From the NCBI GenBank assembly GCA_002917775.1, contig KZ627149.1:599689-663688 (forward strand): DNA of 64,000 nucleotides, read 5' to 3'. The position numbers and the translations under genes were made by a program. A model generated the notes under the pieces. That model saw only the letters and a list, made by a program, of their open reading frames with translations. It had not been told where the DNA came from and did no database searches. Origin of the DNA: Glaciozyma antarctica PI12. Its lineage: Eukaryota; Basidiomycota; Microbotryomycetes; Kriegeriales; Camptobasidiaceae. Positions 30,801 to 64,000 of the stretch are shown here, piece after piece (the first letter of the stretch is position 1; every line of letters starts with the position of its first letter).

Positions 30801-31115
30801 GCTTCCACAACGAGGCGCCAACACCTTGAGCAGTCAGGGTCACGCGGAGAGCCTGCCTTCAGCTCGCCCCCGCTACCCCGCCTTCTCCCTCCACTCTCCT
30901 CCGCTCCCACACCGTGTCCAAGGCTCCAAAAACTCACCAGCAAGTCCCCTCGTCTTCCCCACCATCCTCTCTCCCTGCATCTCGTTCCCCGCGCCGACCC
31001 CGGCCACGAGCCCGCTCGTTTGAGCGCTCGCGGTCCTCAGCTGGCGCAGGATGACCTGGCGCGTAAGAGCGGCTGGCCTTGCGCGCGCGGTCTTGTTGAG
31101 CTGCTTGGAGAGCAT
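27814..31115 (-). CDS. MCCA: 3-methylcrotonyl-CoA carboxylase alpha (biotin) subunit
   Basis: The biotin-carrying subunit of mitochondrial MCC (leucine catabolism): it carboxylates its own biotin with bicarbonate and ATP. From ATG 31113-31115 the presequence is [20 protein letters not shown], rich in Arg/Lys/Ser and without acids. Biotin carboxylase domain: FNKILIANR(GEIA), [18 protein letters not shown], the ATP-grasp loop [10 protein letters not shown] (about 29,835-29,865), [21 protein letters not shown]-terminal biotinyl domain: [19 protein letters not shown], with the biotinyl-lysine codon at 27995-27997 and an intron two codons later, then [12 protein letters not shown]. It ends [10 protein letters not shown] at TGA 27814-27816. 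Well over ten introns. Its promoter and presequence are near-copies of those of the beta-subunit gene just upstream. Confidence 0.94.
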
Positions 31116-31374
31116 CGTCGGTCGTTCCTGTTGAGTGTGGAAAGAGGGCGGGGCGGAGGGAGCAAGGCCCAGCCCGCGCGGGCTGGGACCCGACGGACCA
31201 CGGAGACAGGGAAGAGTTTCCATTTTGCGTGTGGGCTTTTGTGGGCCNTTGGTTAATGCCCAACACGCGCGAAACGACAGGCAAGAATCACCCAAGGCTG
31301 GGCCAGGTCACGCGTGAAGTAGTCGGCGAGAGAGAGGGGTAGCGAGCCTCGCGAAGCCTATTCTCCGACTTCGC
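30984..31374 (-). repeat. MCC promoter-presequence duplication, copy A (MCC alpha)
   Basis: This segment matches 34019-34406. It spans the first 35 codons of MCC alpha, its 5' leader and the promoter. The first 105 coding bases (31011-31115) differ from copy B at only three positions, two of them silent. The leader (31116-31257) is alignable but clearly diverged. The distal block 31258-31346 differs at one base in 89. The single N of the window (about 31,249) lies inside this copy. Confidence 0.9.
31258..31346 (-). promoter_or_regulatory. Conserved upstream block of MCC alpha
   Basis: This 89-bp block begins 143 bp upstream of the MCC alpha ATG and is identical at 88 of 89 positions to the block 34290-34378, which begins 143 bp upstream of the MCC beta ATG. 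Read toward the gene it contains CACGCGTGACCTGG, TTGGGTGATTC and ACGCGCGTGTTGGGC. It is the best candidate for a shared activator-binding region of the two carboxylase genes. Confidence 0.65.
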
Positions 31375-31598: not shown

Positions 31599-34147
31599 CT
31601 GTCGAAAGCATCAGCATGTTCCCCAGCGCGAACGACCGTGCGAAGCTGCTCACCATGCGGAAAACACCCATGTTGCCTCGTTCCCGGTTCACAGGATCCC
31701 AAGACTTCATCGCGACCGCCAATCCGAGTCCCAAAACCGACCTAGTATCGGAGGGCTTGATGATTCCGTCGTCCCACAGCCGTGCCGAGGCGTAAAGCGG
31801 CGTCGACTGGTGCTCGATCTGCGCCTTGAGCTTCGACGTCTTGGCCGTATCCCTGCGCACGAGTGTCAGAATTGTCTGTAGAAGGAGGGGGAGGAGAGAC
31901 GCACTTGGAAACGGTGGCCATAACGTCCTGCAGCTGATCTCCGCCCATGACCGACACCCTCGCGTTGGGCCACATCCACAAGAAGCGAGGAGAGTACCTG
32001 TGATACGGTCGTCAGCTGCTGATCGCGTGCGGAAAGGCGAGTCGAGAGAGCGAGCAGGTAAAGAAGGACTCACGCTCGTCCGGCCATTCCGTAGTTTCCA
32101 GCTCCGTACGATCCACCGACGATGACGGTGAACTTGGGAACGGTGGTAGCTGCGACAGCGCGAACCATCTTTGCGCCGTTCTTCGCGATTCCCTGCGCGT
32201 CAAGAGTTGTTAGCGTCGACAACAGGAGCGAATACCCGGGGGAGGGAAGCGAGCGAGGAGAAGGGAACACTCACGCCCTTCTCTGCGTCCTTGCCGACCA
32301 TGAATCCAGAAATGTTGACGAGGAAGACGAGAGGGATCCCTCGTTGCTCGCAGAGCTGAACGAACTGCGAAGCCTTGAGGGCAGCGGGGGAGAGTAGGAT
32401 ACCGTTGTTGGCAATCTGCGTCGCAAAGCTTGTCAGCGAAGACCGCTTGTGAAGTAAAATAGGTAACGCACGATGCCGACGGGGTAGCCGTGAATATGCG
32501 CTGAGAATCGTCAGTTCCTGCGAGGTAGGAATGAGCGAGAGGGAACTCACAGAAACCGGTGACGACGGTAGGTCCGTACTCCTTCTTCCACTCGTGGAAC
32601 CGACTGCCATCCACCACGCGCGCCACGACCTCGCGCATATCCCAGTTCTTCTTCAAGTTCGTTCCCACCACTCCTCCGAGCTCCTTGGGATCGTAAAGCG
32701 GCTCCTCGACCTCCTCAGGCTTGACAAACTCGCTCCTCCATCCGAGCGGCTTGTAGCTCAGCGCGCGAACGGCGGAACGAGCGATCGAGAGAGCGTGCGA
32801 GTCCGAGTTTGCGAGATGGTCGACGACACCTGATTCGGTCGCGTGCATGAGGCCTCCACCGAGAGTCTCGGAATCGACTTCCTCGCCGAGAGCGGCCTTG
32901 ACGAGAGGAGGACCGGCGAGGAAGATCGTGCCTTGGTTCTTGACGATGATGTTCTCTGCGAGGGCAAGGTGAGGAGCTGAAAGAGTGGGAGATGGAGAGG
33001 GACGGACCATCAGCCATGGCGGGAACGTAAGCTCCTCCAGCAACACTGATACCGTGAACAACGGCGATTTGACTGCGACGACCTAGTCAGCTCGTGCGAC
33101 GGAGATGGAAGCAGCGAGAGAAATAACGCACGGGATCGCAGCGGCCGACAGCTGAGCCATGTTGTAGAAGATGCGTCCAAAGTGCTCCTTGTCGGGGAAG
33201 ACGTCCGCTTGGTAAGGAAGAGCAGCACCTCCGGACTCGACTGCGAAGGGGAGTTAGGTCGGCGAGAAAGGGAGCTGCGAACGACGTACCGAGGTAGATA
33301 CAGGGAAGCTTGTTCTCCTTTGCGATTTCTTGCGCGCGAAGGTGCTTCTTGACTGGAGACGAGTGCGTTAGGTAGATTCGTGCGAGAAGGACGGAGCGAG
33401 ACGAACCAGTGACGGGGTGGTAGCTCCCTCCCTTGACGGTCGCCTAGTGTCTCGCATCAGCTCTAGCTCAACGCGCGTATCGGGGGAAGAAGCGTACGTC
33501 GTTCGCGACAATCATGCACTCGGTCCTGGAAGTCTCGCGTCAGCTCCCTGCCAGCTCGACAGCACCAGGTCGGGAGGGACTCACCCGCTAATCCTTCCAA
33601 TTCCAGTGATGATTCCAGCAGCTGGCAAAGGTCCGTCGTACATCTCGTGTCCCGCAAAGGGCGACAGCTCCAAGAAGGGCGAGAACGGATCCAGCAGCTG
33701 CTCAATCCTGTTCGCGGCATCAGTTCCCTCCTCGAGTGCATCGCCTGGCTCTCCAACTCACCTCTCGCGAACCAGCAGCTTCCCAGGCACACTGTGCACC
33801 TTGGCCCTCGCCTTCTCTCCTCCTCCCAGCTCCACAACGCGCAACAAGCGCTGCAAGTCGTCCTCGAGTACCTTCATCGCCTCCGCGCGCTCGACGAACT
33901 CTGGAGAGGTCGGGTCGATGGCGGTCGGGAGGGTCGTGGAGAGGTGGGAGGCGGAGGTGGGAGCAACGGAGGTGAAGCCTCGGTTACGGAGGAGAGAGTG
34001 GGATCCAGCTGCCTTGTCCTTCCCCGCGAACTCGGCCATGACCCCGCTCGTTTGAGCGCTCGCGGTCCTCAGCTGGCGCAGGATAACCTGGCGCGTGAGA
34101 GCGGTTGGCCTTGCGCGCGCGGTCTTGTTGAGCTGCTTGGAGAGCAT
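31596..34147 (-). CDS. MCCB: 3-methylcrotonyl-CoA carboxylase beta (carboxyltransferase) subunit
   Basis: The carboxyltransferase subunit of mitochondrial MCC: it moves CO2 from biotin to 3-methylcrotonyl-CoA. From ATG 34145-34147 the presequence [20 protein letters not shown] differs from that of MCC alpha by one residue in the first 35. The mature part follows the family: [131 protein letters not shown] and the terminal MGVFRM. Family members stop right after FRM. Here an intron (31599-31653) follows that ATG codon and the stop codon TGA (31596-31598) is the first triplet of the next exon. Without splicing, about 120 extra codons would be read. About thirteen introns. Confidence 0.94.
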
Positions 34148-39799: not shown

Positions 39800-41149
39800 T
39801 TAAAGCGTCTTGACTCCGACGGCGGCTCCGCTGACCTTGCTGTAGTAAATAAGGGCGAGAACGACGTAGGCCTCCAGGGCGTCCTTGATTCCGAAGAGGA
39901 GAGCCTGCGAAAGCACCGCCTTGGTGATCTGCGCCTGCATGCCCTGCGTTCCAGATGGGTTAGCGAGCGTTCGTCACGAGGAATGAGGAAGAACGCACCT
40001 GGTACCAGCCTGCGAATCCCTTCTCCTTGTACGTCTGAGTGAGGACGTCGATCGCTCCCGAGTATCGCTCCTTCTTCGACGCCGCGACGGCGTTTCCAGC
40101 TGCGTCGATAGCGGCAGGCGTGTCGTCGGTGTACTTGGCTTGAAGACGAGTCTTGGCCATAATGTAGGGGTAGGTGACCTGCGGAGCGCGTGTTCGTTAG
40201 CTTCGAGCGGAGAGAGAGCTAGCGGAGCGACTCACGACCGTCGCCATCGTCTTGCTGAGCGCACCGAGGACGAACGCCTTGCCGGGAGTCATCTTCTCTC
40301 CATCCTTGAGCACGGCCGTCTTGAGCCTCTCGAACATGCCGTACGTGATGGCGGGGTTGACGGTAAGGACGAGACTCGGCTTGAGTCCGCGCCAAAGTCC
40401 AGTGATGCCGTCGTCGGCGAGGATCGACTTGAGCGTCGCGAGGAACGAGATGCTCTTGTCGGCCAGCTGCTGACGCGTCGCGATCACCGACACGGGGATC
40501 GTGAAGAGTTGAGCGAACGCGGCGGCCAACGCGCCAAGTGCGAGCTCGGTGAGAGTGTTGAGGGAGGCGTTGGGGAGGGTGGGGAAGAAGCGCTTGACGT
40601 AGGTTCGGCGCACGATCGTGTACCAGTAGAAGTAGGCGCTGGAGAGAGCGTAGTGTTAGCTCGCTGAGTCCATCCTTGAGCGCGCGATATCGCATGAAAG
40701 GGCCACTCACAACTGCATGCTGAACGTGTTGAGCATGCTGGCGCCAAAGCCACGGTACAGTCCTGCGACACCCTGCTCCTTGAGGATCTTGAAGAGCATA
40801 CGCCTGGCTCCAGAGCCTTTGGCGAGAGTGAGCTGCCGGGGAGCTCCGGGTCGCTTGAGGGAAGAGGGGGTGGCCGAATCGGCCGACGCGGTGGGAGTCT
40901 GCACCTCGGTTTGAATGCGAGTCTTGATGCTGTAGAAGTCGTGGGTTAGCTGGGGAAAGTCGGGGAACAGCGGGGGCCGGGGACGAACGTGTCGAGAGGG
41001 TAACTGCGATAGAGGATGGTCAGCCGGTGACCAAGATGAAGCGCCAGTGAGGGCGAGGGAGAGGAAACGCACATGACAGAGTTACTGACAACGCCTCCTA
41101 CTGCGCCAGCAAAGGCCATTCCGAAGGGAGAGAGCAAGCTTTTGCTCAT
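39800..41149 (-). CDS. Mitochondrial-carrier-family transporter, peroxisomal PMP47/ANT1 type
   Basis: A six-helix SLC25-family carrier. From ATG 41147-41149: MSKSLLSPFGMAFAGAVGGV, then the first repeat with YPLDT and IKTRIQTE; GAGASML-type helix sequence (GLYRGFGASMLNTFSMQ); second repeat with LGALAAAFAQLFTIPVSVIA, TRQQLA; then GITGLWRGLKPSLVLTVNPA. The third repeat has TYPYIMAKTRLQAKY and ends GVKTL at TAA 39800-39802. TIPVSVIATRQQ, in place of a standard PxD/E-x-x-K/R motif in repeat two, is typical of the peroxisomal adenine-nucleotide carriers (Candida PMP47, yeast Ant1, human SLC25A17). Those supply ATP for acyl-CoA activation in peroxisomes. A peroxisomal location is inferred from this likeness only. 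Confidence 0.8.
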
Positions 41150-41459
41150 GGTTTGACCGAGAGGCTGGGGTAAAGTAAGCGGGGGAGGCGGGGGAAAGGG
41201 CGACGACTGGGCGTGGCGAGCTGGCTGCTGGGGCTGAGCTGGAGGCTGAGCTGGAGGAGAAGTGCTGCTTTTTGGCGTGGTAGACGAAGAGGACCAAGGA
41301 ACGACTTGAGGACGAATCTCGTCAAGTTGGGACCGCCGGCTCTGTGCGCGAATCTGCGCCGGCTCCTCATCTCTACCCGAGGAATCTCCTAATCTCTCTC
41401 GCTGTGAGCTGGGGCAGCCGTTGATAGTCTTAAACAGCAGGAAACGTTGCACATTTTCA

Positions 41460-42833
41460 TCATCTCGCCTCGACCTCGCCCAGATAGATAACACCCACAA
41501 CACCCTCGAGCTCGCGACGACTGGTTCGCGAGGACTCCAGTCCGTCGCAATCACCGTTCCCGTGTGTCCAGGAAGCTGGATACGCGTGTTAGCACGTTCG
41601 AAAGGCGTCGCTCAATGCCGTAGCGACTCACCTTGTAGCGTATCTCCCCGGTAGACGCATCCCACACCGTCAAAGCGCGGTCGGCACCTCCAATCGCGAC
41701 CATCGACCCTCCTCCAGCGACCTGCGTCGAGTGCTTGCTCCACGACGCCTTCCGCAAGAGTCCCTCAAAGCCAGCCGGTGCGCCGTAGAAGCTCCGAATC
41801 AGGCGAGGGTGGAGTGCCGGATTGGCGGTGTTGAGAGTCGGAGCGAAGGGCTGGACGGACCAGATGTGAAGGACGGAATCCATCGAAGAGGTGAGGAGTT
41901 GGGAGGAAGTGGGGCAGAGGGAGAGGGAAGTGATGGTGTCGGTGTGGCCGCGGAGGGTGTAAGAGATGGCGTGTTGGGAGAGGGAGAAGACGTGCACGTC
42001 GTTGTCGACGCCGCCGATGTAGATGGACTGCCCATCCTCGGACCACTTGACCTGATGATCGAGCACTTGGTCAGCTGCAGTCCCAGCTTTAGCGCAGAGA
42101 AGAGAGAGACGCGCACGGTCGTGATAGGATAGCCCAGCTCCACCACCTCGACCTCCTCCTTCGCCTCGGCCGACCAAACCCTCACCGTCCCGTCGTCGCT
42201 CCCAGTTACGATCAACCCCTTCCCTGCTCCACCATGCTGCACGTCCACGCTGTTCACGATGCCCCGGTGTCCTCGGAAGCGACGAATGACCTCGCCCGAC
42301 TTGAGGTTGTAGAGGAAGACGGTGTGGTCGGTGCAGCCAACAACGAGAGTCGTATTGCTGGCGTACGCAAGGGAGGTGGGAGTGCCCTTGGGAAGTCGAA
42401 TGATGCCGTAGCTGAAGGGGAGGGAAGAACAGCACCGTCAGCTCCCTCGTCCCCCACGCGTCCTCCCACCGCAGGAGCACCGCACTCACTTCTCGCAGGC
42501 GCCGTAAACCTTCCATAGCAGGACCGTCTTGTCCGCACTCGCGCTGGCAATGCTCTCTCCGTCGGGAGAGAACTTGAGATCCAACACCTCGCCGCGGTGG
42601 CCCTGTCAACACCCAGTCAGCCCCAATCCTGCCCTCCACAAAGCTTCTCCACGTACCTGCAAGCACATGATGGGCGCCTGGAGACCTGAAGTACGCCGGA
42701 TCGTCTGGATCAGAGCGCCCTTGTTCGCGCTGTTTCCGTCACTCGCGACGACGATTTGTTGCAACGCCGGATCGTCCTCCACACGAGCACGCTTGATGAG
42801 CGACGAAGACTCGCTTCCTGGGCGTTTTGACAT
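41460..42833 (-). CDS. SNRNP40: U5 snRNP 40-kDa WD40 protein
   Basis: A WD40 propeller protein of the spliceosomal U5 snRNP. Minus strand from ATG 42831-42833: MSKRPGSESSSLIKRARVED, RTSGLQAPIMCLQ, then WD repeats beginning GHRGEVLDLKFSPDGESIAS, ASADKTVLLWKVYG, GVDNDVHVFSLSQHAISYTL, RGHTDTITSLSLCPTSSQLL and LPGHTGTVIATDWSPREPVV. The N-terminal KR-rich lead followed by APIM-L-GH is characteristic of U5-40K. The last repeat runs ASSRVLWVLSI in the long frame, but a neighbouring frame gives VIYLGEVEAR with TGA 41460-41462, the expected family ending. A one-base slip near 41,500-41,510 is likely. It diverges from an unknown gene over 169 bp. Confidence 0.87.
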
Positions 42834-45655: not shown

Positions 45656-46942
45656 TTATTGCGACGAGCCTTCCGTCTCGAGGAACGACAGAATGAAGCC
45701 CGCTTCCAATGCCTCCCCCCATGCGATCCCCAACTGCTCCTGCTCCTCCGCTTTCGTACTCTTCTTCCCCGTAAACCCATCCACCATCAGAATCCTCAGC
45801 TCGAGCAGCTCGCCCTCCATCCTCCGCTCAATGACCGCTTTGACGAGTTGTTGAAGGCTCTGCGGCGTAGGGGGCGGTTGCAGAAACGTTCCCTGAAGGA
45901 GGTTGCGAGGGAGGAATTCGACGAGGCGGAGGGGCCAGTCGAAGAGGTGGAGAGAGCGGAGGGCGTGGCAGTGTTGCAGGACGGTGAGGAACGTGGGGGT
46001 GACGAGGAAGGAGGGGGTGGGGGTGACTCGAAGAAGGGCGACGGAGACTTCTTCGAATGGGATGTGGGGGTAGAAGGTGAGGGCGCGGAGGCTACTGGCG
46101 ACGATGGAGAGGGCGGCAGCGACGTCGAGGGAGGAAAGTTTGGGGCAGCTCTTCACCCTGAGATTCTCGAGCGACCGCGAGTTGTTGACGATGTAGAGGA
46201 GGTTTCCGGGGTCGAGGTCGGTGTTTTCGAGCTCGAGGGTGGTGAGGGAGAGAGGCGGGAAGAAAGGGGAGTGACTTGGGAGCGAGCCGAAGGAGTGATG
46301 CAGGTGGAATTCGGTGAGAGTCCCCATCGACCGCATGAGCGTCGAAGCTAGAGAGACGGTACAGGTGTCGACGCTCAAGCGCGTGACGGTCTGCAACGTC
46401 TCCCCGAGCTCTCGGAGCTGTTCCTCTTCGAGAACGCCTTCAAGGTAGAGGGAGAATCCTCGAATCGCCAACGAGGTGAGGAACTCCAGCTCCTTGAGCC
46501 ACAAGAAGAACGCCTTCTGCCCCTCGTTCGCTCCAGCGTTCGCCCGAAATCGTCCCATCCCCTCGTCGTCCGCAGACATCCCCGGCACCTCGAATCCCGT
46601 CCATAGCTGTACGTCTCCTGGTCGATTCACTACGAGCTCCCGTGGGATTTTGGCCAGCTCTGGCCTGTTGCGGAACGTTCGTAAGACGAGGAGGGCTGTT
46701 GGAGGATCCCAGTGGAAGTAGAGGCGGCGGTAGAGGGTCGACGTCGCCGACTTTGACCAATGCTTTGAGACGAGGCACAGCACGCGCAGTGAGGCGTCGT
46801 CCTTGGCGTTAAGTTCCTCCGTCTGGGTCACCAGTTCGAAGATGATGCTCAACAGCTCTGGGAGGAGATCGGAGGCGAGAGAGGGAGAGCGGGAGGGGGG
46901 AGGGGGAGTTCGGCGAAGGAGGACTGAGTCGTAATCGGCCAT
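45656..46942 (-). CDS. Single-exon F-box/LRR-like protein
   Basis: An intronless 428-residue frame on the minus strand, unusual among such intron-rich neighbours. The N-terminus has an F-box-like segment: LASDLLPELLSIIFELVTQT, then RVLCLVSKHWSKSATSTLYR. Leucine-rich repeats follow (FLTSLAIRGFSLYLEGVLEE; LQTVTRLSVDTCTVSLASTL; SLTTLELENTDLDPGNLLYI; SLENLRVKSCPKLSSLDVAA; LRSLHLFDWPLRLVEFLPRN). It ends FLETEGSSQ. It is probably an SCF substrate adaptor. Its gene structure could mean a retrocopy or simply intron loss. It diverges from NSP1 over 210 bp. Confidence 0.78.
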   Translation of the reverse strand: MADYDSVLLRRTPPPPSRSPSLASDLLPELLSIIFELVTQTEELNAKDDASLRVLCLVSKHWSKSATSTLYRRLYFHWDPPTALLVLRTFRNRPELAKIPRELVVNRPGDVQLWTGFEVPGMSADDEGMGRFRANAGANEGQKAFFLWLKELEFLTSLAIRGFSLYLEGVLEEEQLRELGETLQTVTRLSVDTCTVSLASTLMRSMGTLTEFHLHHSFGSLPSHSPFFPPLSLTTLELENTDLDPGNLLYIVNNSRSLENLRVKSCPKLSSLDVAAALSIVASSLRALTFYPHIPFEEVSVALLRVTPTPSFLVTPTFLTVLQHCHALRSLHLFDWPLRLVEFLPRNLLQGTFLQPPPTPQSLQQLVKAVIERRMEGELLELRILMVDGFTGKKSTKAEEQEQLGIAWGEALEAGFILSFLETEGSSQ

Positions 46943-47152
46943 CGTGGTGCTGCAGCAACAAAGTCGTCAGCCTCTCTGTCTGGCCAGCGCTCTGGGAAGC
47001 AGGCTCACCTGACTTGGAGTGAGGAGTAAAAGGGCGCGCGGATTCCGGCTCACTAGACATTAAATTTGGCTGAGTACCTAGAAAAAGTATTGGTAATTTC
47101 CTGCTTCTCTCGTCCCGCAGGAGTTTGGTTTGCTCCGCCTCTCACACCAACG

Positions 47153-47156
47153 ATGG
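47153..47156 (+). other. Four-nucleotide first coding exon of NSP1
   Basis: ATGG is followed at once by the donor gtgagt. The acceptor ttgcag (ends 47206) joins it to CGTTCAACTTTGG, giving Met-Ala-Phe-Asn-Phe-Gly. No other upstream ATG keeps the FG frame open. Confidence 0.75.
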
Positions 47157-49372
47157 GTGAGTGCGCCTTGGTCTATGAGGGGATTGCACTGACGCTGCTC
47201 TTGCAGCGTTCAACTTTGGCGGAAGTGGCTTCAGCTTCGGCTCAGCTCCAGGTGAGTCGCTCCTCGCGTTCCTCTTGACGGACCGCACTGACAGACGACG
47301 ACAACGCAGCGCAAGCACCGGGCGCCGCTGCACCAGCAAACCTCTTCGGACAACCCGCCACTACCACCGCTCCTCCCTCCACCGGCCTCTTTGGTCAGGC
47401 AGCACCAGCTCCCGCCGCTGCTCTAGCGTTCAGCGGATTCGGCGCCGCCCCTGCCGCAGGAGGATTCGGAGGATTCGGAGCATCAGCACCTGGGACAACT
47501 GCGGGAGCACCGGCGCCTTCGCTCTTCGGTGGAGCTGCCCCGGCGGCGATAGTATGATTGTTTGGAACGCCAGCAGCGAAGCCGCCGACGACGGGGCTGT
47601 TTGGTGCGGCGCCTGCAGCAGCACCTTCGTTCGCCACGCCTGCGCCTAAGCCTGCTGCAGGACTGTTTGGAAGAGGAGGATTCGCGTTGGGAGGAGCGGC
47701 GGGGACGACGACGCCTGCAGGAACACCAGGACCGGCTCTCTCTTTCGGAGCACCAGCAGCAGCAGCCGCACCTGCCACGACGGGCTTCAGTGGGTTTGGG
47801 GCACCAGCGCCGGCCGCCAGCACTACCCCTGCGGCAGCACCGCCAGCGACAAACTTGTTTGGAGGAGGCGCGGGAGGAGGATTGTTTGGGAAGCGAGACG
47901 CGGAGGCGGCTTCGGATGGCGGAGGGAAGAAGCCTGCCTTCTCAGGATTCGGTGGAGCACCTGCGGCGACGACCCTAGCTGCTGCTCCCGCCCTGGGAGC
48001 GACGACGGCCGCCCCCTCACTCTTCGGAGCCCCAGCAGCCGCCACCTCCGCACCCTCCCTCTTTGGCGGACTCGGTGCGTCCGCAACAGCCGCTCCCTCC
48101 GCCCCTCCCTCCACCACCCCTTCCCTCTTCGGCGCAAAGCCCGCCACGACCGCACCAGCGGCCCCCGCTGGCCTTTTCGGCGCCCCCGCATCGACCGCAC
48201 CCCCCGCCGCCACTACCTCCCTCTTCGGCGCTCCTGCCGCCGCCAAACCTCTCTTCGGCGCTTCCCCTACACCCACAGCTTCCACTACTCCCGCTAACAC
48301 CACTCCTGCCGCCACGACGCCTTCTCTCTTTGGCGCAAAGCCAGCAGCCGCCCCCGCCGCAGGTGAGCACGATTTCGGATCATCGCCTTGCGGATCTCAG
48401 CTGATCCTCCTTCATAGCAGCCACCTCCGCCCCCCTCTTCTTCGGTGCCCCTTCCGCCCCTCCCACCGCCTCTTCCGCCCTCACCTTTGGCGCCAAACCA
48501 GCCGCGACGACGGGTCTCGCGCTCGGCAAGCCCGCTGCGCTGGGAGCCACGACTACGGCGGCGCCTGGAGCGACGGCACCGGTTCCGTCGTTGTTGAGGG
48601 GTAAGACGCTCGAGGAGATTGTGAACAGCTGGAGTGGCGAGTTGGAGGAGAGGACGAGGGACTTTACGGATATTGCTGGGGAGGTGAGGGAGTGGGATCG
48701 CGTGCTGAGGGAGAACGGAGAGAAGGTGCGTCCTTTCCTCTCGGGACTTCAAGAAAGGAAGCTGACGATGTCGATCTGAAGATCTCGGAGCTGTACACGT
48801 CCGTCTTGCCGCTGTCGCCGCTGCAGGGACAGATCTCGTCGTCGCTCGACTACGTCGAGAGTCAGCAGAAGGACCTGGCGGCTATCTTGGATAGCTACGA
48901 GGCGCAGATTGGAGACCTTGTGGACCAGAGCTCGACGAGCGCAGGCTGGAGGGGAAACAGCGGACAGGCGGAGAAGGAGCGGGAGAAGGCGTGCGTTCTC
49001 TTCCTCTCCACTTACATCGCGCGTTTGCTGACTTCGCGGCGCAGGTACACCCTCGCCACCTCGCTCTCCAACTCGCTCGACACGACCTCCACCTCCCTCA
49101 CCTCCCTCATCCAAACTCTCAACTCGCTCTCCCCCTCCCTCCGCCCCTCCGCCACCGCCTCAGCGCCCGACGACCCTCTCACCCAGATCGCGGCCATCCT
49201 CAACGCCCACCTTGGCAGCCTCAAGTGGATCGAAGGGACTACGGACAACCTCAGGAAGAACGTGAATGAGCTCGAGGGACGGGTGGGAGAGGTCGGGAGC
49301 AGGATGTCGGCGAGAGCGATGGCGCCTGGGAGGGGAGCGGGGTTGGGAGCTTCGAGTCCTTCGAGGAGGTAG
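47153..49372 (+). CDS. NSP1: Nucleoporin Nsp1 (Nup62 family)
   Basis: An FG nucleoporin of the central channel. The first coding exon is just ATGG (47153-47156). Intron 47157-47206 leads to AFNFGGSGFSFGSAP, and a second intron to AQAPGAAAPANLFGQ. A long Ala/Pro/Thr-rich domain with many SLFG, GLFG and FGA units follows. The C-terminal coiled-coil domain of the Nsp1/Nup62 type begins LRGKTLEEIVNSWSGELEER, continues ISELYTSVLPLSPLQGQISS and ends GASSPSRR at TAG 49370-49372. One in-frame TGA (47555-47557) interrupts the FG domain just before LFGTPAAKPPTTGLFG, where GGA (Gly) would be expected. The frame is the same on both sides, so a base error or a strain-specific nonsense change is possible. 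Confidence 0.88.
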
Positions 49373-49497
49373 TGGGAATACGAGACTTGTTTGGTGTCCT
49401 CGTTCGCTGGAGAGCGAGAGAGAGTCTGTTCCCGATCGTCGAGAGCGGAGCAAGGGGCTTCGAGTTGCGAGTGGTGGTACAGGTTACGAAGGGGTGA

Positions 49498-50007
49498 CTA
49501 CTTGAGACCGAAGGAAGGGGGATCGTGGAAGCCTTCGGGCAGGGGCGTGCCGTTGAGCTTCGATAGGCGCTCCTCCTGCCGAGGGAGGTGGATCAGCTCC
49601 GCTCCTTCGTCTGCCCTCGTCCGAACGTACCTCCTCGTGAGCTGCGAGTGCCTCAAGTCCCATCCTTAGCCGCTCAGTGTGCATGGCGTAGATTCCGTAG
49701 GTTCCGTCTGCTCAATCGAGTCAGCTACGAAACGAAGTAGAAAGGTGCTCCGCTGGTCTTCTCCGAAATGCTGGCCGTCGCCTCCTGCGAAGCCTTGTGA
49801 CGCGCGCCGCCACTCCTGGCATTCCTCCTGGGTCCCTATAGCATGTGGACTCACAGAGAGTGACGCCGAAGAGGGTGGAGACGAGAGCCCTGGGGATCGA
49901 GTAAGTCAGGACCGAGTTGGAAGCCTTGGGATGGGAGTGGCGCGAGCGCAACTCGGCGGGTGGACGTACCTGTGCGCGTAGTCGACGATAGTCAAGCGTG
50001 CTGCCAT
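49498..50007 (-). CDS. COX14: Cox14-like mitochondrial microprotein
   Basis: A protein of only about 74 residues from four exons, easily missed by ORF callers. Minus strand from ATG 50005-50007: MAARLTIVDYAHR, ALVSTLFGVTLY, GTYGIYAMHTERLRMG, LEALAAHEE, ERLSKLNGTPLPEGF, ending HDPPSFGLK at TAG 49498-49500. One transmembrane helix (ALVSTLFGVTLYGTYGIYAM) is preceded by a short amphipathic start with DYAHR, matching the yeast Cox14 layout (DTLHRLTVLTLVGGTLY). Cox14 is an inner-membrane factor coupling COX1 translation to complex IV assembly. Intron 2 (49708-49854) is 147 nt, more than twice the local norm. The assignment rests on this short similarity. Confidence 0.7.
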
Positions 50008-51855: not shown

Positions 51856-53478
51856 CTAGCGATCTCGCTCCCTGTTCCTCTGCCTCGGCGGACTGCGAGA
51901 CCTCCGCTCATCTCTTCGCTCATCCCTATGCGAACCTCCACCACTCCGCTCTTCCCTCCCTCCACTCCTCCCATACCTCCCTCGATCATCCCTCCTCTCC
52001 GGCGCCCTCCTATCATCCCCTCGTCCCCCGCCACCTCCCCCGCGACTCCCTCGATAACCTCCATCGCGATCCCTATCCCGCTCGTCGATCCGCTCGCGAG
52101 GCCGCTTCCGCTCCTGCTCGTCCGTGTCTCCGAGGTCGAAGACGAGTTCGCGGTCGTCGCGACCTCGACCGTGTGGTCGGGGTGTAGGAGGAGGAGGGGA
52201 TTCGTGGCGACGGGAAGGACCTTTGTTGGGAGGAGGTCGGCCACCCGTCTTTTTGATGACGTGCGCTTCGTGCAGTTTTGATACGGACTGCGTGTGGGAG
52301 TCAGCGAAATATTCGGGAGCAACGGAAAGAACGGAGACGCACTTGGGAGAAATCGACGTGAATCCGACGGTCGTCGACGAGTACGTTGTCCATCTTGGCG
52401 TACGCCCGCTCCGCCTCCTCCTTCTCCTTGAACTCGACAAAAGCATACTGCAGCGAGTCCCCCGTTTTGGCGTCGCAGATGATCTCGCAACTCATGATCG
52501 TTCCAAAGCGCGAGAAGATCAACTCGAGGTCCTCGCTCTTGGTGATCTGGTTGAGCTTGCACACGAAGAGCACATTCTCGGGTGGCGCGACGTCTGCGAA
52601 CGGGAGGTCCCCCACCATCTCGAGCGTGAGAGCTTGCGCGCGTGCGTCCCGCGCTCGACGAACCGCCTCGATAGTATCGGGGTCGCCGGACTCCTCGATG
52701 GACTCTTCGTCGCCGACGCGGAGGGAGGCGAGTTGGGAAGCGGTGGGAACTGGGGAAGAGGGAGGGACGAGGAGGCCTGGTGGGTCGGGGAAGGGATCGT
52801 CTGCGAGGGAGAGGTCAGCTCCGTGTCTCCTCTCGCTCCTCCGACGCGACTCACCCAGAACGATGACATGCCGGATCCTGATATCCCTCAGCGGCTTCCC
52901 CTCGCCATCCGTAAACGCCTCGCTAATCTTTGCCAGCGTATCCTCCCCCTCGACGACCCTCCCAAACGGCGCGTGCTTCCCATCCAGGTAGTCCAGCTCA
53001 GGCGCAAGCGTGAAGAAGAACTGGCTCCCCGCTCCTCGCGCATCCCCATCTCCTGCAATAGCCATCGAGAGTGTCCCCATTGCCGTATGCTTGAGAGTAG
53101 GGTGGAGCTCGGGGACGAAGTACTTGTTGGGAGAGTAGGCGGGCGAGGATTTGGGGAGGAGGTGGAAGATGGAAGCGCCGCCGAGACCAGTGTCGGTAGG
53201 GTCGCCAGTCTGGGCGATAAAGTCCTTGATCACGTTGTGGAAGGAGCAGAAGTTGTAGGTGTACGACTTGCAGAGCTTGAGGAAGTTGAGCGAGGTGCGG
53301 GGGCAGCGGGTCGTTTCGAGGTCGACCTGCGCGGGGAGAGAAGGTGAGCTGGGTGGGGAGCTTGCCAGGTGACGAGTTGCGCACGATGATGTCGCCTAGG
53401 GAGGTCTCGAAGAGGACAGACTGTGGGGAGCTCTTGTCAGGTGGAGCAGCTTGGACTCAGGTCTTTGGGACGTACCAT
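51856..53478 (-). CDS. PPIL4: Cyclophilin-RRM protein (PPIL4 type)
   Basis: A nuclear peptidyl-prolyl isomerase with an RNA-binding domain, linked to splicing. The start codon (53476-53478) is an exon by itself. Intron 53421-53475 leads to [17 protein letters not shown]. Cyclophilin domain: [77 protein letters not shown]. After an acidic linker comes an [63 protein letters not shown]. The tail is RS/RD/RGG-rich ([20 protein letters not shown]) to TAG 51856-51858. The order cyclophilin, RRM, Arg-rich tail defines PPIL4. The 3' ends of this and the Laa2-like gene are 55 bp apart. Confidence 0.93.
53476..53478 (-). other. ATG-only first coding exon of PPIL4
   Basis: Reading on the coding strand: ATG, gtacgt...(55 nt, with cacctgac branch)...ccacag, TCTGTCCTCTTCGAG. 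The join gives Met-Ser-Val-Leu-Phe-Glu-Thr, the usual PPIL4 N-terminus. If the intron were kept, the frame would end at a TGA inside it. Confidence 0.75.
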
Positions 53479-59741: not shown

Positions 59742-60562
59742 ATGTCCGCAGCTCCCAGCACAGCAGCCTTCTTCACCGGCACCCCCACGCGCGTCGGTCC
59801 TCTCCTGCCCAACGGCGAACCACTCCTCATCGACCCCGTCGACAACTGGGAACTTCGTCGGGCGGAATGGCTCTCGAGGCATAGGGAGGTTCCGCGTGCG
59901 GCGAGGGAACCGGCGTTCGCTGCGAGGCTGGAAGCGCTGCAGGATATGTTGCGTCCTCCAAATCCTCCTCCGACGACCTCCCAACCTCCTCCTTCGACGA
60001 CCTCACCAGCACCTCGTTTCGGCACGGCGACGGGGGACAAGGGGAAAGGGAAGGAGGAGATGAGGGCTGAGGAGGAGATGGATGGTGGGGAGGTGATTGG
60101 CTCGAGGGGGAGAGGGGATGAGCTGGAGCGGGCGATGGAGAGCGTTCTGGCGGCGTTTAGGCAGGGACGACCGCTCAAGGATCCTTTGCCATTACCTCTC
60201 GTCGTGCGTCCCTTCCTTTCTATACGCTATGAAGGGGGGCTTTGCGCTAGGAGGGGGACAGGGGAGCTGATGATTCTCTCGACGACGCGCAGACGTCCTT
60301 GCTTTATGCGAGCTGGCAAACCGACGGTACGATTCCACCAGAGTTTCTCAAACCAATCTCGCCGCCTCCTCCTTCCTACACTCCCATTTCCGCCTTCCCC
60401 CTCGTACCAAATCACCAGCAGCACCCGGGGTTCGGGACCGTTCCTCCGCCCGTGCAGCGCGTCGTGATAGGCGGCGATGCGAAGGAGAAGAAGAAGAATC
60501 CGCTCAAGGGGAGTCGGTGGAGGACGGAGAAGGAGATTGCGTCGGGGAGTGATGTTATTTAG
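59742..60562 (+). CDS. DUF4050 / Gag1-like clamp candidate
   Basis: From ATG 59742: MSAAPSTAAFFTGTPTRVGP, then NWELRRAEWLSRHREVPRAA. A Pro/Thr-rich spacer and acidic helices (EEMRAEEEMDGGEV) lead to AMESVLAAFRQGRPLKDPLP, LPLV, one intron, and TSLLYASWQTDGTIPPE. The end is Pro-rich, with KEKKKNPLKGSRWRTEKEIA and TAG 60560-60562. The pairing of an early W-x-x-RR-x-x-W motif with a late PLPL(V)-x-x-L-x-x-x-W-x-x-D/G-GT segment resembles DUF4050 proteins (Gag1-like clamp domain). No function is claimed. Confidence 0.55.
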
Positions 60563-60703
60563 CAAGATTGGAGGGAGAGGGGAGAGAGGTGCCGAGGTGT
60601 TGGAGGAGGCAGGGGTGGGGAAGGCGGGCGATGAGAGTGGGATGGGTATAATGAAGGAGGGGGAGGGTATCGAAGGAGTTTCCGTGAGAGGTGGAGGAAG
60701 CGA

Positions 60704-61232
60704 TCATCGCGAGGGAGGAGCGACCTGGAGCAATGAAGGACGGATCAGCCAGTGCTTCGAGTGGTGCAGCCGTCGTTGCGAAGCCATGTTCGCCTTCACG
60801 AAGTACACTACGAGCAGAGAAGAGCAACTCACAAGTACGACTCCGTCCCCGCGAACGAAGAGCATCTCGCAGTTCCTCTTGACGGTCTGGTGAGGAGGAG
60901 CGCCGTCAGCTTCCCTTCCTCGCCCTCCGAGTCCCAGTAGAGTTACTCACCCGCACCACGCTCTGACCAGTCACCTCGGCCACATCCACGACGTAGATAG
61001 TCTCCTCGACATCCGAGAGAACCATGTTCATGTGTCCATCGTACGCCTGCGTGAGGAAGCCGAGTCAGTGCTGCCGTCCAGGCTCGTCTCTTCCCCGCCC
61101 GGCGCCCTGGTGGAGAACACGCACGTGAAGGACTCCTCGAAGCTCTCGGTCTCCCCTCAGCTTGACGAAGACGCGCTCGGAGAGGGATACACGGATGAGG
61201 TCGAAGGGCTCGACGACGGCGTTTTCAGCCAT
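60704..61232 (-). CDS. LSM3: U6 snRNA-associated Sm-like protein LSm3
   Basis: A ring subunit of the Lsm2-8 (U6 snRNP) and Lsm1-7 (mRNA decay) complexes. Minus strand from ATG 61230-61232: [56 protein letters not shown], then [18 protein letters not shown] and, after a 108-nt intron (60725-60832), VAPPSR with TGA 60704-60706. Sm1 and Sm2 motifs ([18 protein letters not shown]) are intact, and the length (about 90 residues) is right. It diverges from the U1-C gene, with 208 bp between the start codons, so two spliceosomal proteins share one promoter region. Confidence 0.93.
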
Positions 61233-61440
61233 CTTGAGGAGCGAGGGGTGGGTTGGCGGAGGGAGAGGAGGCGAGGGTCTCACTGGGCGTCGCTCGGGTG
61301 AGTAAGGAAGCTGAAGGCGAGTTGAGTCGGTTGTTGGAGAGGGCAAAGAGGCGAGCGACGAGAGGAACGCCTCTTGATCCTCCACCACTTCCCCTCCCAG
61401 TTCGTACGCTCCTTGTACGAGGCGTCTAGGCTCGGTTACG
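61233..61440. promoter_or_regulatory. Divergent promoter: LSM3 / U1-C
   Basis: 208 bp separate the start codons of two spliceosome genes. The LSM3 side is rich in GGGAGAGG/CTCCCTC. I see no clear TATA box. Co-regulation is inferred from the arrangement alone. Confidence 0.45.
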
Positions 61441-62638
61441 ATGGGAAAGGTGAGGAATTCCCCCGATAGCACGCAGAGATCCAACTGACCCACCCATCTC
61501 TTCCCAGTGTACGTCCTCCGCCAGCTCTGTCCTTCGCCGCCCCAAACTCACGCTCTCTCTCCTTCTCTGACAGACTTCTGCGACTACTGCGATGTGTACC
61601 GTAAGTCAGGCATGCGTTTTGAGTGGCGTGGAAGGTTATGCGGGGAGGAGGGAGGGGAGGGGACGGCGTGCTGAAGGGGAGGTGATGGAGGAGTGGCAGG
61701 CGCAGCAGAGGCGCGAAGGCGGCAGGAGCAGTACGAACGCGTAAACTGAAACTGACACCTTTCCCTCTTGTACAGTCACGCACGACTCGGCATCAGGTGC
61801 ATAACGGCTGTCTGCGCGAGAGAATGGACGGCGCTTACCTTCGTCTCCACCAGTTCGAAGGGCGCACAACGCAGGACGTAACCACCTCACCAACGTGCGA
61901 GAGTACTACTCGTGTACGTACAGTCACATCCGTCGCGCTTCTTGCGCCAGCTAACCCCCTTCCTTTGCAGCTCTCGGACACGACAAGGCGCAGGACCTCA
62001 TCGACCAGATCACGAAGATGTACGAGTCCGGCGGACCTCCTCCCAACCGTCCCTTCCCCAGCGCACCTATGAGCATGGGACCCGGCCCCCTGAACCCCAT
62101 GGGCGGCATGCCCAGTCCGTCCCATCCCTCTCCTCCCTATCCTCCCACTCACGCGTTCTCGCAGTGCGTCCCCCGTTCGGCGGTCCTCCAGGAATGATGG
62201 GCGGCCCCCCGCAGCAGTTCAACCCCCAGCAGCAGTTCCAGCAACCCCCTCCCTTCCAGCAGCAGCCTCCTCCTTTCGGTCAGAACCCCCCGATGCACTT
62301 TGGTCAAGGCCAGGGCCCTGCCCCGATGGGGCCTCCTCCCATGTTCTTCGGCGGTGGAGGACCACCTCCCATGGCTCCTCCTCCAGGTACGTCATCTCTC
62401 TTTCCCAGCTCAGACGATGCGGGAGCTAACCACCTCGTTCTTCGCAGGCTTCCGCCCTCCGCCTGGAATGGCGCCTCCCCCTGGATTCTTCGGCGCCGGT
62501 GGTCCAGGAGCGACCATCTCGAGTGGACCTAGCATGTCGACGCCTTTGCCTTCAGGCCCACCCGTGTCGGCGAATGGAGATGGGCCGAAGCAGAGTGGGA
62601 TGAACCCTGAGCGCGCACGGATGCTGGGACTTCTTTGA
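61441..62638 (+). CDS. SNRPC: U1 small nuclear ribonucleoprotein C (U1-C)
   Basis: The U1 snRNP protein that stabilises pairing of U1 snRNA with 5' splice sites (Yhc1 in yeast). Coding joins: 61441-61449 (ATGGGAAAG), the single base T at 61508, then 61574-61600 and later exons, giving [19 protein letters not shown], then [20 protein letters not shown] and [20 protein letters not shown]. The C2H2 finger (Cys6, Cys9, His24, His30) is intact. A Pro/Gly/Met-rich tail follows ([38 protein letters not shown]), ending RARMLGLL at TGA 62636-62638. The one-base exon is needed to keep the zinc finger in frame. Seven introns in all by my reading. Confidence 0.9.
61508..61508 (+). other. Single-nucleotide exon of U1-C
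   Basis: Intron 61450-61507 (gtgagg...aactgac...cccag, 58 nt) and intron 61509-61573 (gtacgt...ttctctgacag, 65 nt) leave exactly one base, T, between them. It completes codon 4 (T+AC, Tyr) of MGKY. Removing both introns without the T gives a frameshift ([11 protein letters not shown]...). Keeping the first intron gives a stop. No other acceptor/donor pair in 61450-61573 restores the frame that I could find. Confidence 0.72.
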
Positions 62639-62793
62639 GGGGTTGAGGACCATATATAGGAGGACGGAGGAGGAGGAAAGGTCGCTGGAATGCGTGGTGT
62701 ACTGTATTTCGAAAGCGGGCGTCGAGCGAGGTCAACGAGAGAATACTTGCCAGAGTCGACGCGCGATCGCAGAACGACGACGTGTCTATCGTT

Positions 62794-64000
62794 TCAGACC
62801 TTGGGTCGCTTTGCTCCCTTCTCCGGTGCAGCTCCTCCTCCAGCGCCTGCCGCTACGGGCTTGTTCTTCCACACGCGACCCTTGGTCTCCTTCGGCGCCG
62901 ACTTCCCCGCAGTCGCCGCGTTCTTCTTCTTGTTGTTCTCCTGCTTGTTTCCAAAGCCCTCCGAATGCAGCGACTATCGCACGAACATCAGCAGTGCGTC
63001 GAGAAGTCGGAGAAAGGACGCACCATGTTCGCCATTCGCTTCGCAATTGACACGGCGTTCAGCAGCTCGAGAACGGGTCCTTCGGGTAGCTCCAGCTCTT
63101 CCAGCTGCGTGTCTGCAGAAGCATGTCGAGTTAGCCCTGCGAACAATACAAAACGAGCGAGGGCGACTCACTGATCCTCTCCTCCAGCACATGCACCAAA
63201 TCGACGTCTCCCTCGGTCACGAACGTAATCGACGTTCCCCTCCTCCCCGCACGCGCCGTGCGTCCAACCCGATGCACGTAATCGTCCGCTATCCTCGGTA
63301 CCTCCCAATTGATGACCACGGCCACCTCAGGGATATCGAGTCCTCGACTCCCGACGTCCGTCGCAATGAGGAGCGGAACCGCCTGCTTGCGAAACATGGC
63401 GAGACTCTTGAGTCGTTCGGGCTGAGAGAGGTGGGAGTGAAGTGCGGTGCAGGGGATCGGAGTAGGGAGTTGAGCGAGGAGGGAGGTCATGAGGGCTGCT
63501 GTGCGGCAGTGCGGGACGAAGAGGATCGTTTGAGGCAGTTCGGGCTCAGGGTCCTCCTCTGCGGGACGCTTCGTGCGCTTGTTCGAGTGTCGCTGTCGCT
63601 CTTCGGGTTCGGGAGTGACGCGCGGGTGGAGAGGAGAGGTGTGGGTGAGGGCGCAGAGGTTGAGGAGGAGGTAGACGAGGTAAACTTCGCGGACTTGGGA
63701 AGGGACGAAGACGTAGTGTTGGGTGAGGCCGGCGGGGGTGACGATGCTGCATCGAGTTTCGTTGAGCTTGATTTTCAAGCACATGAAGGAATACGCACGC
63801 TTCGTCGGAGACGTGCATGAACGGGCGAGGCTTGCCCGGCGTCGGTTCCCGTTTTTGAAGAGCGAGGACAGGCTCGGTGAGAGTGGCGGTAAAGAGGAGG
63901 GTTTGACGCTCGGTAGGGAGCTGGTCGATGAGGAAGGAGAGCTCTGGCGCAAAGGTGGGAGTGAGGAGTCGGTCTGCCTCATCGAGTACCTGCCATCGCA
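62794..64000 (-). CDS. DBP8: DEAD-box RNA helicase DBP8/DDX49, N-terminal part beyond window
   Basis: An ATP-dependent RNA helicase of small-subunit ribosome assembly. The window edge cuts the gene just before VLDEADRLLTPTFAPELSFL (motif II, DEAD). Then come LLFTATLTEP (motif III, TAT in place of SAT), QHYVFVPSQVREVYLVYLLL, TILFVPHCRTAALMTSLL, ALHSHLSQPERLKSLAMF, PLLIATDVGSRGLDIPEVAV (motif V), VINWEVPRIADDYVHRVGRT (motif VI), and the tail NKKKNAATAGKSAPKETKGR, ending GAKRPKV at TGA 62794-62796. Spacing and the ARAGRRGTSITFVTEGDVDL segment match DBP8. An insertion with KRTKRPAEEDPEPELP lies between QHYVF and TILFV. Confidence 0.9.

What the first reader, a model, noticed from the sequence alone, without database searches (positions are those of the whole stretch)
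61441..61600. A single-nucleotide exon in the gene for U1-C, the 5'-splice-site recognition protein
Seen: ATGGGAAAG | intron 58 nt | T | intron 65 nt | ACTTCTGCGACTACTGC. Only with the lone T (61508) does the start read MGKYFCDYCD, the invariant U1-C N-terminus; skipping it shifts the frame before the zinc finger. Both flanking introns have good donors (gtgagg, gtacgt), branch-like CTGAC and cag acceptors. Known: U1-C stabilises U1 pairing with 5' splice sites, and a one-base exon has been reported in a plant APC11 gene. Inference: a protein that helps select donors depends on a very demanding splicing event in its own transcript, so correct mRNA output could report on U1 function (a homeostatic loop).
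Basis: partly seen in the sequence, partly recalled or inferred. Interest (0 to 1): 0.92.

Follow-up and report, generated by a model that had tools for sequence, protein, structure and literature searches.

The report
One-letter exon in U1-C gene
The gene for U1-C, a protein that helps cells recognise where introns begin, appears to be readable only if the cell splices in an exon one DNA letter long, an extreme gene structure known so far from a few genes.

Summary
The stretch reads ATGGGAAAG, a 58-nt intron, T (61508), a 65-nt intron, then ACTTCTGCGAC. Of 107 one- or two-intron paths from this ATG to the zinc finger (introns of 30 nt or more), 27 are in frame and only the T path gives the U1-C start MGKYFCDYC with no added residue. 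A gene finder trained on this window alone, free to use exons of any length, picks the T exon locally, 7.9 nats ahead of the next parse and 7.1 when retrained without this region. Of 452 AG-N-GT sites on both strands only this one is this strong; none of 3000 redrawn introns matched it. No RNA or related genome was available.

One-base exons are already reported in plant APC11 and VPS55, Fusarium CYP621A and Candida snoRNA host RNAs, so this is a new member of a known kind, in a core spliceosome gene. Most likely the two introns are removed one after the other. The homeostatic loop is unsupported: as described it would be positive feedback, and the donors are ordinary. One cited element is wrong: CTGAC of intron 2 adjoins the acceptor AG and cannot be its branch point.

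The parts
61441..61449 (+). exon 1, ATGGGAAAG (M-G-K), start codon of U1-C
   Evidence: the only three-codon M-x-[K/R] exon, with or without a final T, followed by GT or GC in 60441-61573
61450..61507 (+). intron 1, 58 nt, GTGAGG...CCCAG, branch CTGAC with A at 61488
   Evidence: total score rank fraction 0.62 of 205 predicted introns, 0.51 of 190 after retraining without the region
61508..61508 (+). exon 2, the single nucleotide T, first base of the Tyr4 codon TAC
   Evidence: only path giving MGKYFCDYC; preferred by 7.9 nats; 1 of 452 AG-N-GT sites
61509..61573 (+). intron 2, 65 nt, GTACGT...GACAG, branch CTCAC with A at 61550
   Evidence: total score rank fraction 0.32 of 205, 0.23 of 190
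61574..61600 (+). exon 3, 27 nt, ACTTCTGCGACTACTGC..., first part of the zinc finger
   Evidence: zf-U1 match
61776..61796 (+). exon 4, 21 nt
61854..61913 (+). exon 5, 60 nt, encodes [20 protein letters not shown]; its start is placed by homology, because the gene finder chose an acceptor 21 nt further on
61971..62114 (+). exon 6, 144 nt
62165..62386 (+). exon 7, 222 nt, proline/glycine-rich tail
62448..62638 (+). exon 8, 191 nt, ends ...ARMLGLL and stop

Best explanation
T61508 is a real internal exon of one nucleotide in the U1-C gene of an intron-rich fungus. The two flanking short introns are each recognised across the intron and removed one after the other, because the acceptor at 61507 and the donor at 61509 are one base apart and can hardly both be occupied. 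In either order the second intron is then ordinary: removing intron 2 first leaves ...CCCAG|TACTTC; removing intron 1 first leaves AAGT|GTACGT, with the same three bases before the donor (AGT). The joined TAC codon restores MGKYFCDYC. Shown: the sequence, the frame, the typical splice signals, and uniqueness among paths and sites. Inferred: that the RNA is spliced this way, and sequentially.
For: Sequence and coordinates. U1-C identity from residue 1. One of 107 candidate paths, 27 of them in frame, gives the conserved start; with introns down to 20 nt, one of 234, 66 in frame. The window-trained gene finder picks it locally: 67.62 against 59.76 with one-base exons forbidden, 48.80 against 41.74 after retraining without the region. 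1 of 452 AG-N-GT sites is this strong; 0 of 3000 redrawn introns. Lengths 58 and 65 fit predicted introns of median 56, quartiles 53-66; introns of 115-133 nt are 4 of 205. 224-codon open gene, introns 2-7 all phase 1. The zinc-finger frame has no ATG between its upstream stop (61486) and the finger, so a Met must come through splicing. Precedents: APC11, VPS55, CYP621A, and one-base exons in Candida snoRNA host RNAs, described from RNA-seq, show that fungal spliceosomes can do it.
Against: No transcript, related genome or resequencing was available. The gene models behind the scores are my own unsupervised predictions, not curated. Intron 2 scores below the median, and slightly below the rival intron 61450-61524 taken alone (rank fractions 0.32 and 0.34; 0.23 and 0.28); it wins as a whole gene parse. 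Under other settings the same program also called a second one-base exon elsewhere, so a call by the program alone is not proof. In the whole-window parse T61508 was used but joined to an upstream exon antisense to LSm3 rather than to ATG 61441.
Confidence: 0.9

Rival explanations
1. Assembly error or strain mutation: a T is missing from the end of exon 1 or the start of exon 3, the true gene has one 124-nt intron, and AG-T-GT inside it is a coincidence.
For: A 124-nt intron GTGAGG...GACAG is itself legal, if weak (rank fraction 0.16 of 205).
Against: Only two exact positions would do, and neither lies in a homopolymer (sequence). The decoy would have to be the strongest AG-N-GT site of the window by chance (1 of 452; 0 of 3000) and also carry T, the only base that makes NAC an aromatic codon. 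Introns of 115-133 nt are 4 of 205.
Confidence: 0.04
2. A single 75-nt intron 61450-61524 is used, giving [25 protein letters not shown], a U1-C with 16 inserted residues; no one-base exon.
For: Canonical GT-AG, in frame, shares the CTGAC branch; total rank fraction 0.34 of 205, a little above intron 2's 0.32; open to the normal stop.
Against: The gene parse scores 7.9 nats less, 7.1 after retraining. zf-U1 falls from 73.5 to 64.3 bits and profile positions 1-4 are lost. The U1-C sequences have no such insert. The retained 49 nt look like an intron end (pyrimidine-rich, CTCAC, CAG). Its acceptor is weak (rank fraction 0.14).
Confidence: 0.03
3. The two introns form a stwintron (nested introns removed inside out) and no base is kept.
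For: Two adjoining introns and consecutive excision are the hallmark of fungal stwintrons (PMC5639578, PMC7138796, passages).
Against: Neither intron interrupts a splice element of the other: GTACGT and CCCAG are both intact, with T between them. Loss of T shifts the frame and stops at nt 219.
Confidence: 0.02
4. A four-base exon CTCT (61525-61528) is used instead, giving MGKLYFCDYC.
For: In frame; one residue longer; zf-U1 69.6 bits.
Against: Its donor GTCCTT scores -0.75 against 5.31 for GTACGT; it inserts a residue before the finger.
Confidence: 0.01

Closest known systems
Single-nucleotide exon of Fusarium CYP621A P450 genes (PMC12940212, 2026)
   Same: Fungal protein-coding nuclear gene with short introns, found because a conserved motif could not be joined in frame; interval more than twice the usual intron (139 nt there, 124 here)
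   Different: Ascomycete, base G (part of both splice consensuses), 20 orthologues in its abstract and RNA reads; here base T, one genome, a spliceosomal protein
Single-nucleotide exon of Arabidopsis APC11 (PMC4674806)
   Same: One base between AG and GT, needed for frame; removal of the two introns one after another proposed
   Different: Plant, 422-nt interval, base A, shown by cDNA and mutant constructs; here two short fungal introns, base T, no transcript evidence
1-nt microexons of plant APC11 and VPS55 (PMC8831610, passages)
   Same: Conserved one-base exons missing from annotations, affecting the N-terminus
   Different: RNA-seq and RT-PCR support and deep conservation; not fungal
Single-base exons in Candida snoRNA host transcripts, clusters II and III (PMC5033589, passages)
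   Same: One base between two nuclear spliceosomal introns in a fungus; splicing order matters
   Different: Non-coding host RNAs, so no frame or protein at stake; seen in RNA-seq
Stwintrons (PMC5639578, PMC7138796, passages)
   Same: Two adjoining short introns removed by consecutive reactions
   Different: There, in the strict sense, one intron splits a splice element of the other; here both elements are whole and one base is kept
Human U1C / U1-70K cross-regulation (PMC3798272, abstract)
   Same: U1-C level linked to splicing of a U1 protein's RNA, with NMD
   Different: Acts on U1-70K through an alternative 3' splice site; not on its own RNA

Membership tests
Single-nucleotide exon (APC11/VPS55/CYP621A kind) | one base flanked by AG and GT, between two usable introns | tested here: met
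   CCCAG T GTACGT; introns 58 and 65 nt with branch sites; total rank fractions 0.62 and 0.32 of 205
Single-nucleotide exon (APC11/VPS55/CYP621A kind) | needed for reading frame and conserved motif | tested here: met
   only path of 107 giving MGKYFCDYC; skipped product has no zf-U1 hit
Single-nucleotide exon (APC11/VPS55/CYP621A kind) | present in transcripts | not testable with these tools
   no RNA data held
Single-nucleotide exon (APC11/VPS55/CYP621A kind) | conserved in related species | tested here: inconclusive
   no relative found, but the collections searched are viral and prokaryotic; own genome not held
U1-C (U1 snRNP protein) | N-terminal U1-type zinc finger starting at residue 1, followed by a proline-rich tail (tail recalled) | tested here: met
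   zf-U1 1.1e-20 over 1-38 of 38; U1-C chains 1.4e-18 to 8e-10, all five aligned from residue 1; tail
Stwintron (strict sense) | an internal intron interrupts the donor, branch or acceptor of an external one | tested here: not met
   both donors and acceptors are whole, one base between
Stwintron (strict sense) | consecutive excision | not testable with these tools
   needs splicing intermediates
Recursive splicing (internal exon of size zero) | AG directly followed by GT, no base between | tested here: not met
   T lies between them; definition as used in PMC5033589

The most novel reading that the evidence does not exclude
The one-base exon is a built-in gauge of splicing: its inclusion needs two precise sequential events whose rate depends on U1 snRNP, so U1-C output, through NMD of skipped or retained forms, follows U1 function. 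As drawn this would be a positive (switch-like) loop; it becomes homeostatic only if high U1-C favours skipping or the 61524 acceptor.
Probability: 0.06. Interest if true: 0.85.

Novelty: new member of a known kind. Interest (0 to 1): 0.48.

Why it matters
One-base exons are the limit of what splicing can do, and my searches showed them in only a few nuclear genes. A case in a core spliceosome gene would widen the known range and give a short natural substrate (124 nt, two small introns) for asking how splice sites one base apart are served and in what order. It also warns annotators: the best parse of my own gene finder without one-base exons gave this gene a false 16-residue insert.

Tried and rejected
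Own genome and relatives: none held or found, so conservation could not be tested. First gene-finder settings were degenerate (658 introns, about 19 one-base exons) and were dropped. Second settings gave 180 introns and two one-base exons, this one and one on the minus strand within 45656-50007 that did not recur under the third settings. Third settings gave 28 genes, 205 introns (177 internal exons) and one internal exon of 5 nt or less, this one, though joined there to an antisense artefact; the local parse gives the structure reported. The settings were changed by hand because genes merged, with this locus in view. The run with the region cut out found no internal exon of 5 nt or less elsewhere. 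The isoform lines used an exon 5 start one base off and are void; one search replaces them. Rfam and tRNA scans gave nothing; tandem repeats gave no row in 60100-64000; NCBIfam gave nothing for U1-C. Stwintron and zero-size recursive exon were rejected on anatomy. The loop was tested only through donor strength and isoform outcome.

Bearing on the 61524 rival: Yhc1 tolerates many single changes, though not Cys6 to Ala (PMC3985668, passages), so intolerance of a 16-residue insert is likely but not proved.

Full report
What is there. The gene is U1-C: the translated N-terminus matches Pfam zf-U1 over the whole profile with 73.5 bits, and all five PDB sequences listed are U1-C and align from residue 1 (1.4e-18 to 8e-10), starting MPKFYC or MTRYYC against MGKYFC here (by PMC3985668, 2VRD is human U1C and the 231-residue protein is yeast Yhc1). 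With eight exons, the second being T61508, the gene is open for 224 codons and ends ARMLGLL-stop; introns 2 to 7 are all phase 1 and intron 1 is phase 0. Exon 5 was placed by homology (61854), since the gene finder took an acceptor 21 nt later that drops VRRAHNA.

Is the T required? I listed one- and two-intron paths (GT-AG, GC-AG, AT-AC) from the ATG to the zinc finger. With introns of at least 30 nt there are 107 paths, 27 in frame without a stop; with at least 20 nt, 234 and 66. In both lists only one path gives MGKYFCDYC; all others add residues. The shortest rival of the first list, a CTCT exon, adds one and needs a donor of score -0.75. The single intron 61450-61524 is in frame but inserts 16 residues and drops zf-U1 to 64.3 bits. 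The zinc-finger frame holds no ATG between its upstream stop and the finger, and no other three-codon M-x-[K/R] exon followed by GT or GC lies in 60441-61573.

Are the introns ordinary? No genome was held, so I trained a simple gene model on the window without labels. The settings used gave 28 genes and 205 introns with median length 56 (quartiles 53-66); GTACGT is the donor in 26 and GTGAGG in 4; CAG is the acceptor in 173; CTGAC is the branch in 80 and CTCAC in 14. Intron 1 has total rank fraction 0.62 and intron 2 0.32; the single 124-nt intron 0.16; the rival 61450-61524 0.34; 4 of 205 introns are 115-133 nt long. T before the donor occurs in 27 of 205. The only CTGAC of intron 2 adjoins the acceptor AG; CTCAC with A at 61550 is the likely branch.

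Is it more than chance? With one-base exons allowed, the local parse scores 67.62 and uses T61508; forbidding them gives 59.76 with the 61524 acceptor. Retrained on the window with 60901-62800 cut out, the figures are 48.80 and 41.74. Of 452 AG-N-GT sites on both strands, 67 of them AGTGT, only this one has acceptor-plus-branch and donor scores at or above its own. Redrawing the interior of the 124-nt stretch 3000 times, first 6 and last 30 bases kept, never gave a one-base exon as good (that model had been trained with the locus included). Against this, other settings called a second one-base exon elsewhere and degenerate ones about 19, so the program alone is not proof; its agreement with protein homology is what decides.

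How it most likely works. The acceptor at 61507 and the donor at 61509 are one base apart, so both can hardly be served at once; removal one after the other is the simplest account, and the one Guo and Liu favour for APC11 (PMC4674806, parts 1 and 2 of 3 read). Either order leaves a normal intron: the three bases before the second donor are AGT both before and after intron 1 is removed. Skipping T, retaining either intron, or retaining both gives early stops with 2 to 6 junctions downstream, so errors would probably be degraded by NMD, if this fungus has it. Use of the 61524 acceptor would instead give a full-length protein with 16 extra residues.

The proposed loop. Donor strengths are ordinary (rank fractions 0.31 and 0.40; 6 and 5 of 9 U1 matches, mean 5.4). 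If low U1-C lowers inclusion, the loop is positive, not homeostatic. The human precedent links U1C to U1-70K (PMC3798272, abstract). I regard the loop as possible but unsupported.

Comparison with what is known. One-base exons are reported for Arabidopsis APC11 (PMC4674806), plant APC11 and VPS55 (PMC8831610, passages) and Fusarium CYP621A (PMC12940212, parts 1 and 2 of 3 read), which its authors call the first in a fungal gene. An earlier paper describes single-base exons between introns of Candida snoRNA host RNAs (PMC5033589, passages). In fungal mitochondria two group II introns flank one base (PMC12308204, passages), and placozoan mitochondrial cox1 has one (PMC5436844, listing only). A 2011 survey noted 1-bp exons in annotations and thought experimental support necessary (PMC3064661, passage). 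Searches seen in full (14 of 14 papers; 11 of 11; 14 of 14) and in part (20 of 233; 20 of 117; 25 of 288; 15 of 493) showed no U1-C or basidiomycete nuclear case by title, abstract start or the passages read; this covers only the open library, and the gene may well be modelled correctly in some database. It is not a stwintron in the strict sense, because neither intron interrupts a splice element of the other.

Limits. No transcripts, relatives or raw reads could be examined.

Noticed in passing
window about 60800-61232, minus strand: LSm3 (U6 snRNA-associated) gene, divergent from U1-C with about 208 nt between the two ATGs, so two snRNP protein genes may share a promoter. Pfam LSM 8.5e-20, best PDB hit LSm3 4.5e-32; start at 61232.
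   Followed up: partly
window 39800-42833 and 51986-53478, minus strand: A WD40 protein that by recall resembles U5-40K, fused by my gene finder to what looks by recall like a mitochondrial carrier, and a cyclophilin with an RRM (Pfam), by recall like PPIL4: possibly more splicing-related genes in one 64-kb window.
   Followed up: partly
window 30938-31223 and 33762-34147, minus strand: The first exons of two neighbouring genes, one with a carboxyl transferase domain and one that by recall is its biotin-carboxylase partner (methylcrotonoyl-CoA carboxylase), share an almost identical stretch [14 protein letters not shown][A/T][20 protein letters not shown], as if a targeting presequence had been copied.
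   Followed up: no
window 61450-61524: An in-frame alternative acceptor at 61524 would give a U1-C with 16 extra residues before the zinc finger; it may be a minor isoform or an annotation trap.
   Followed up: partly
window 45656-50007, minus strand: Under one parameter setting the gene finder called another one-base exon here; it did not recur under the next settings and may be a chance rescue of a frame break.
   Followed up: no
window 61441-62638: Introns 2 to 7 of the U1-C gene are all phase 1 and only intron 1 is phase 0, which might mean that intron 1 is the later arrival next to an older phase-1 intron.
   Followed up: no
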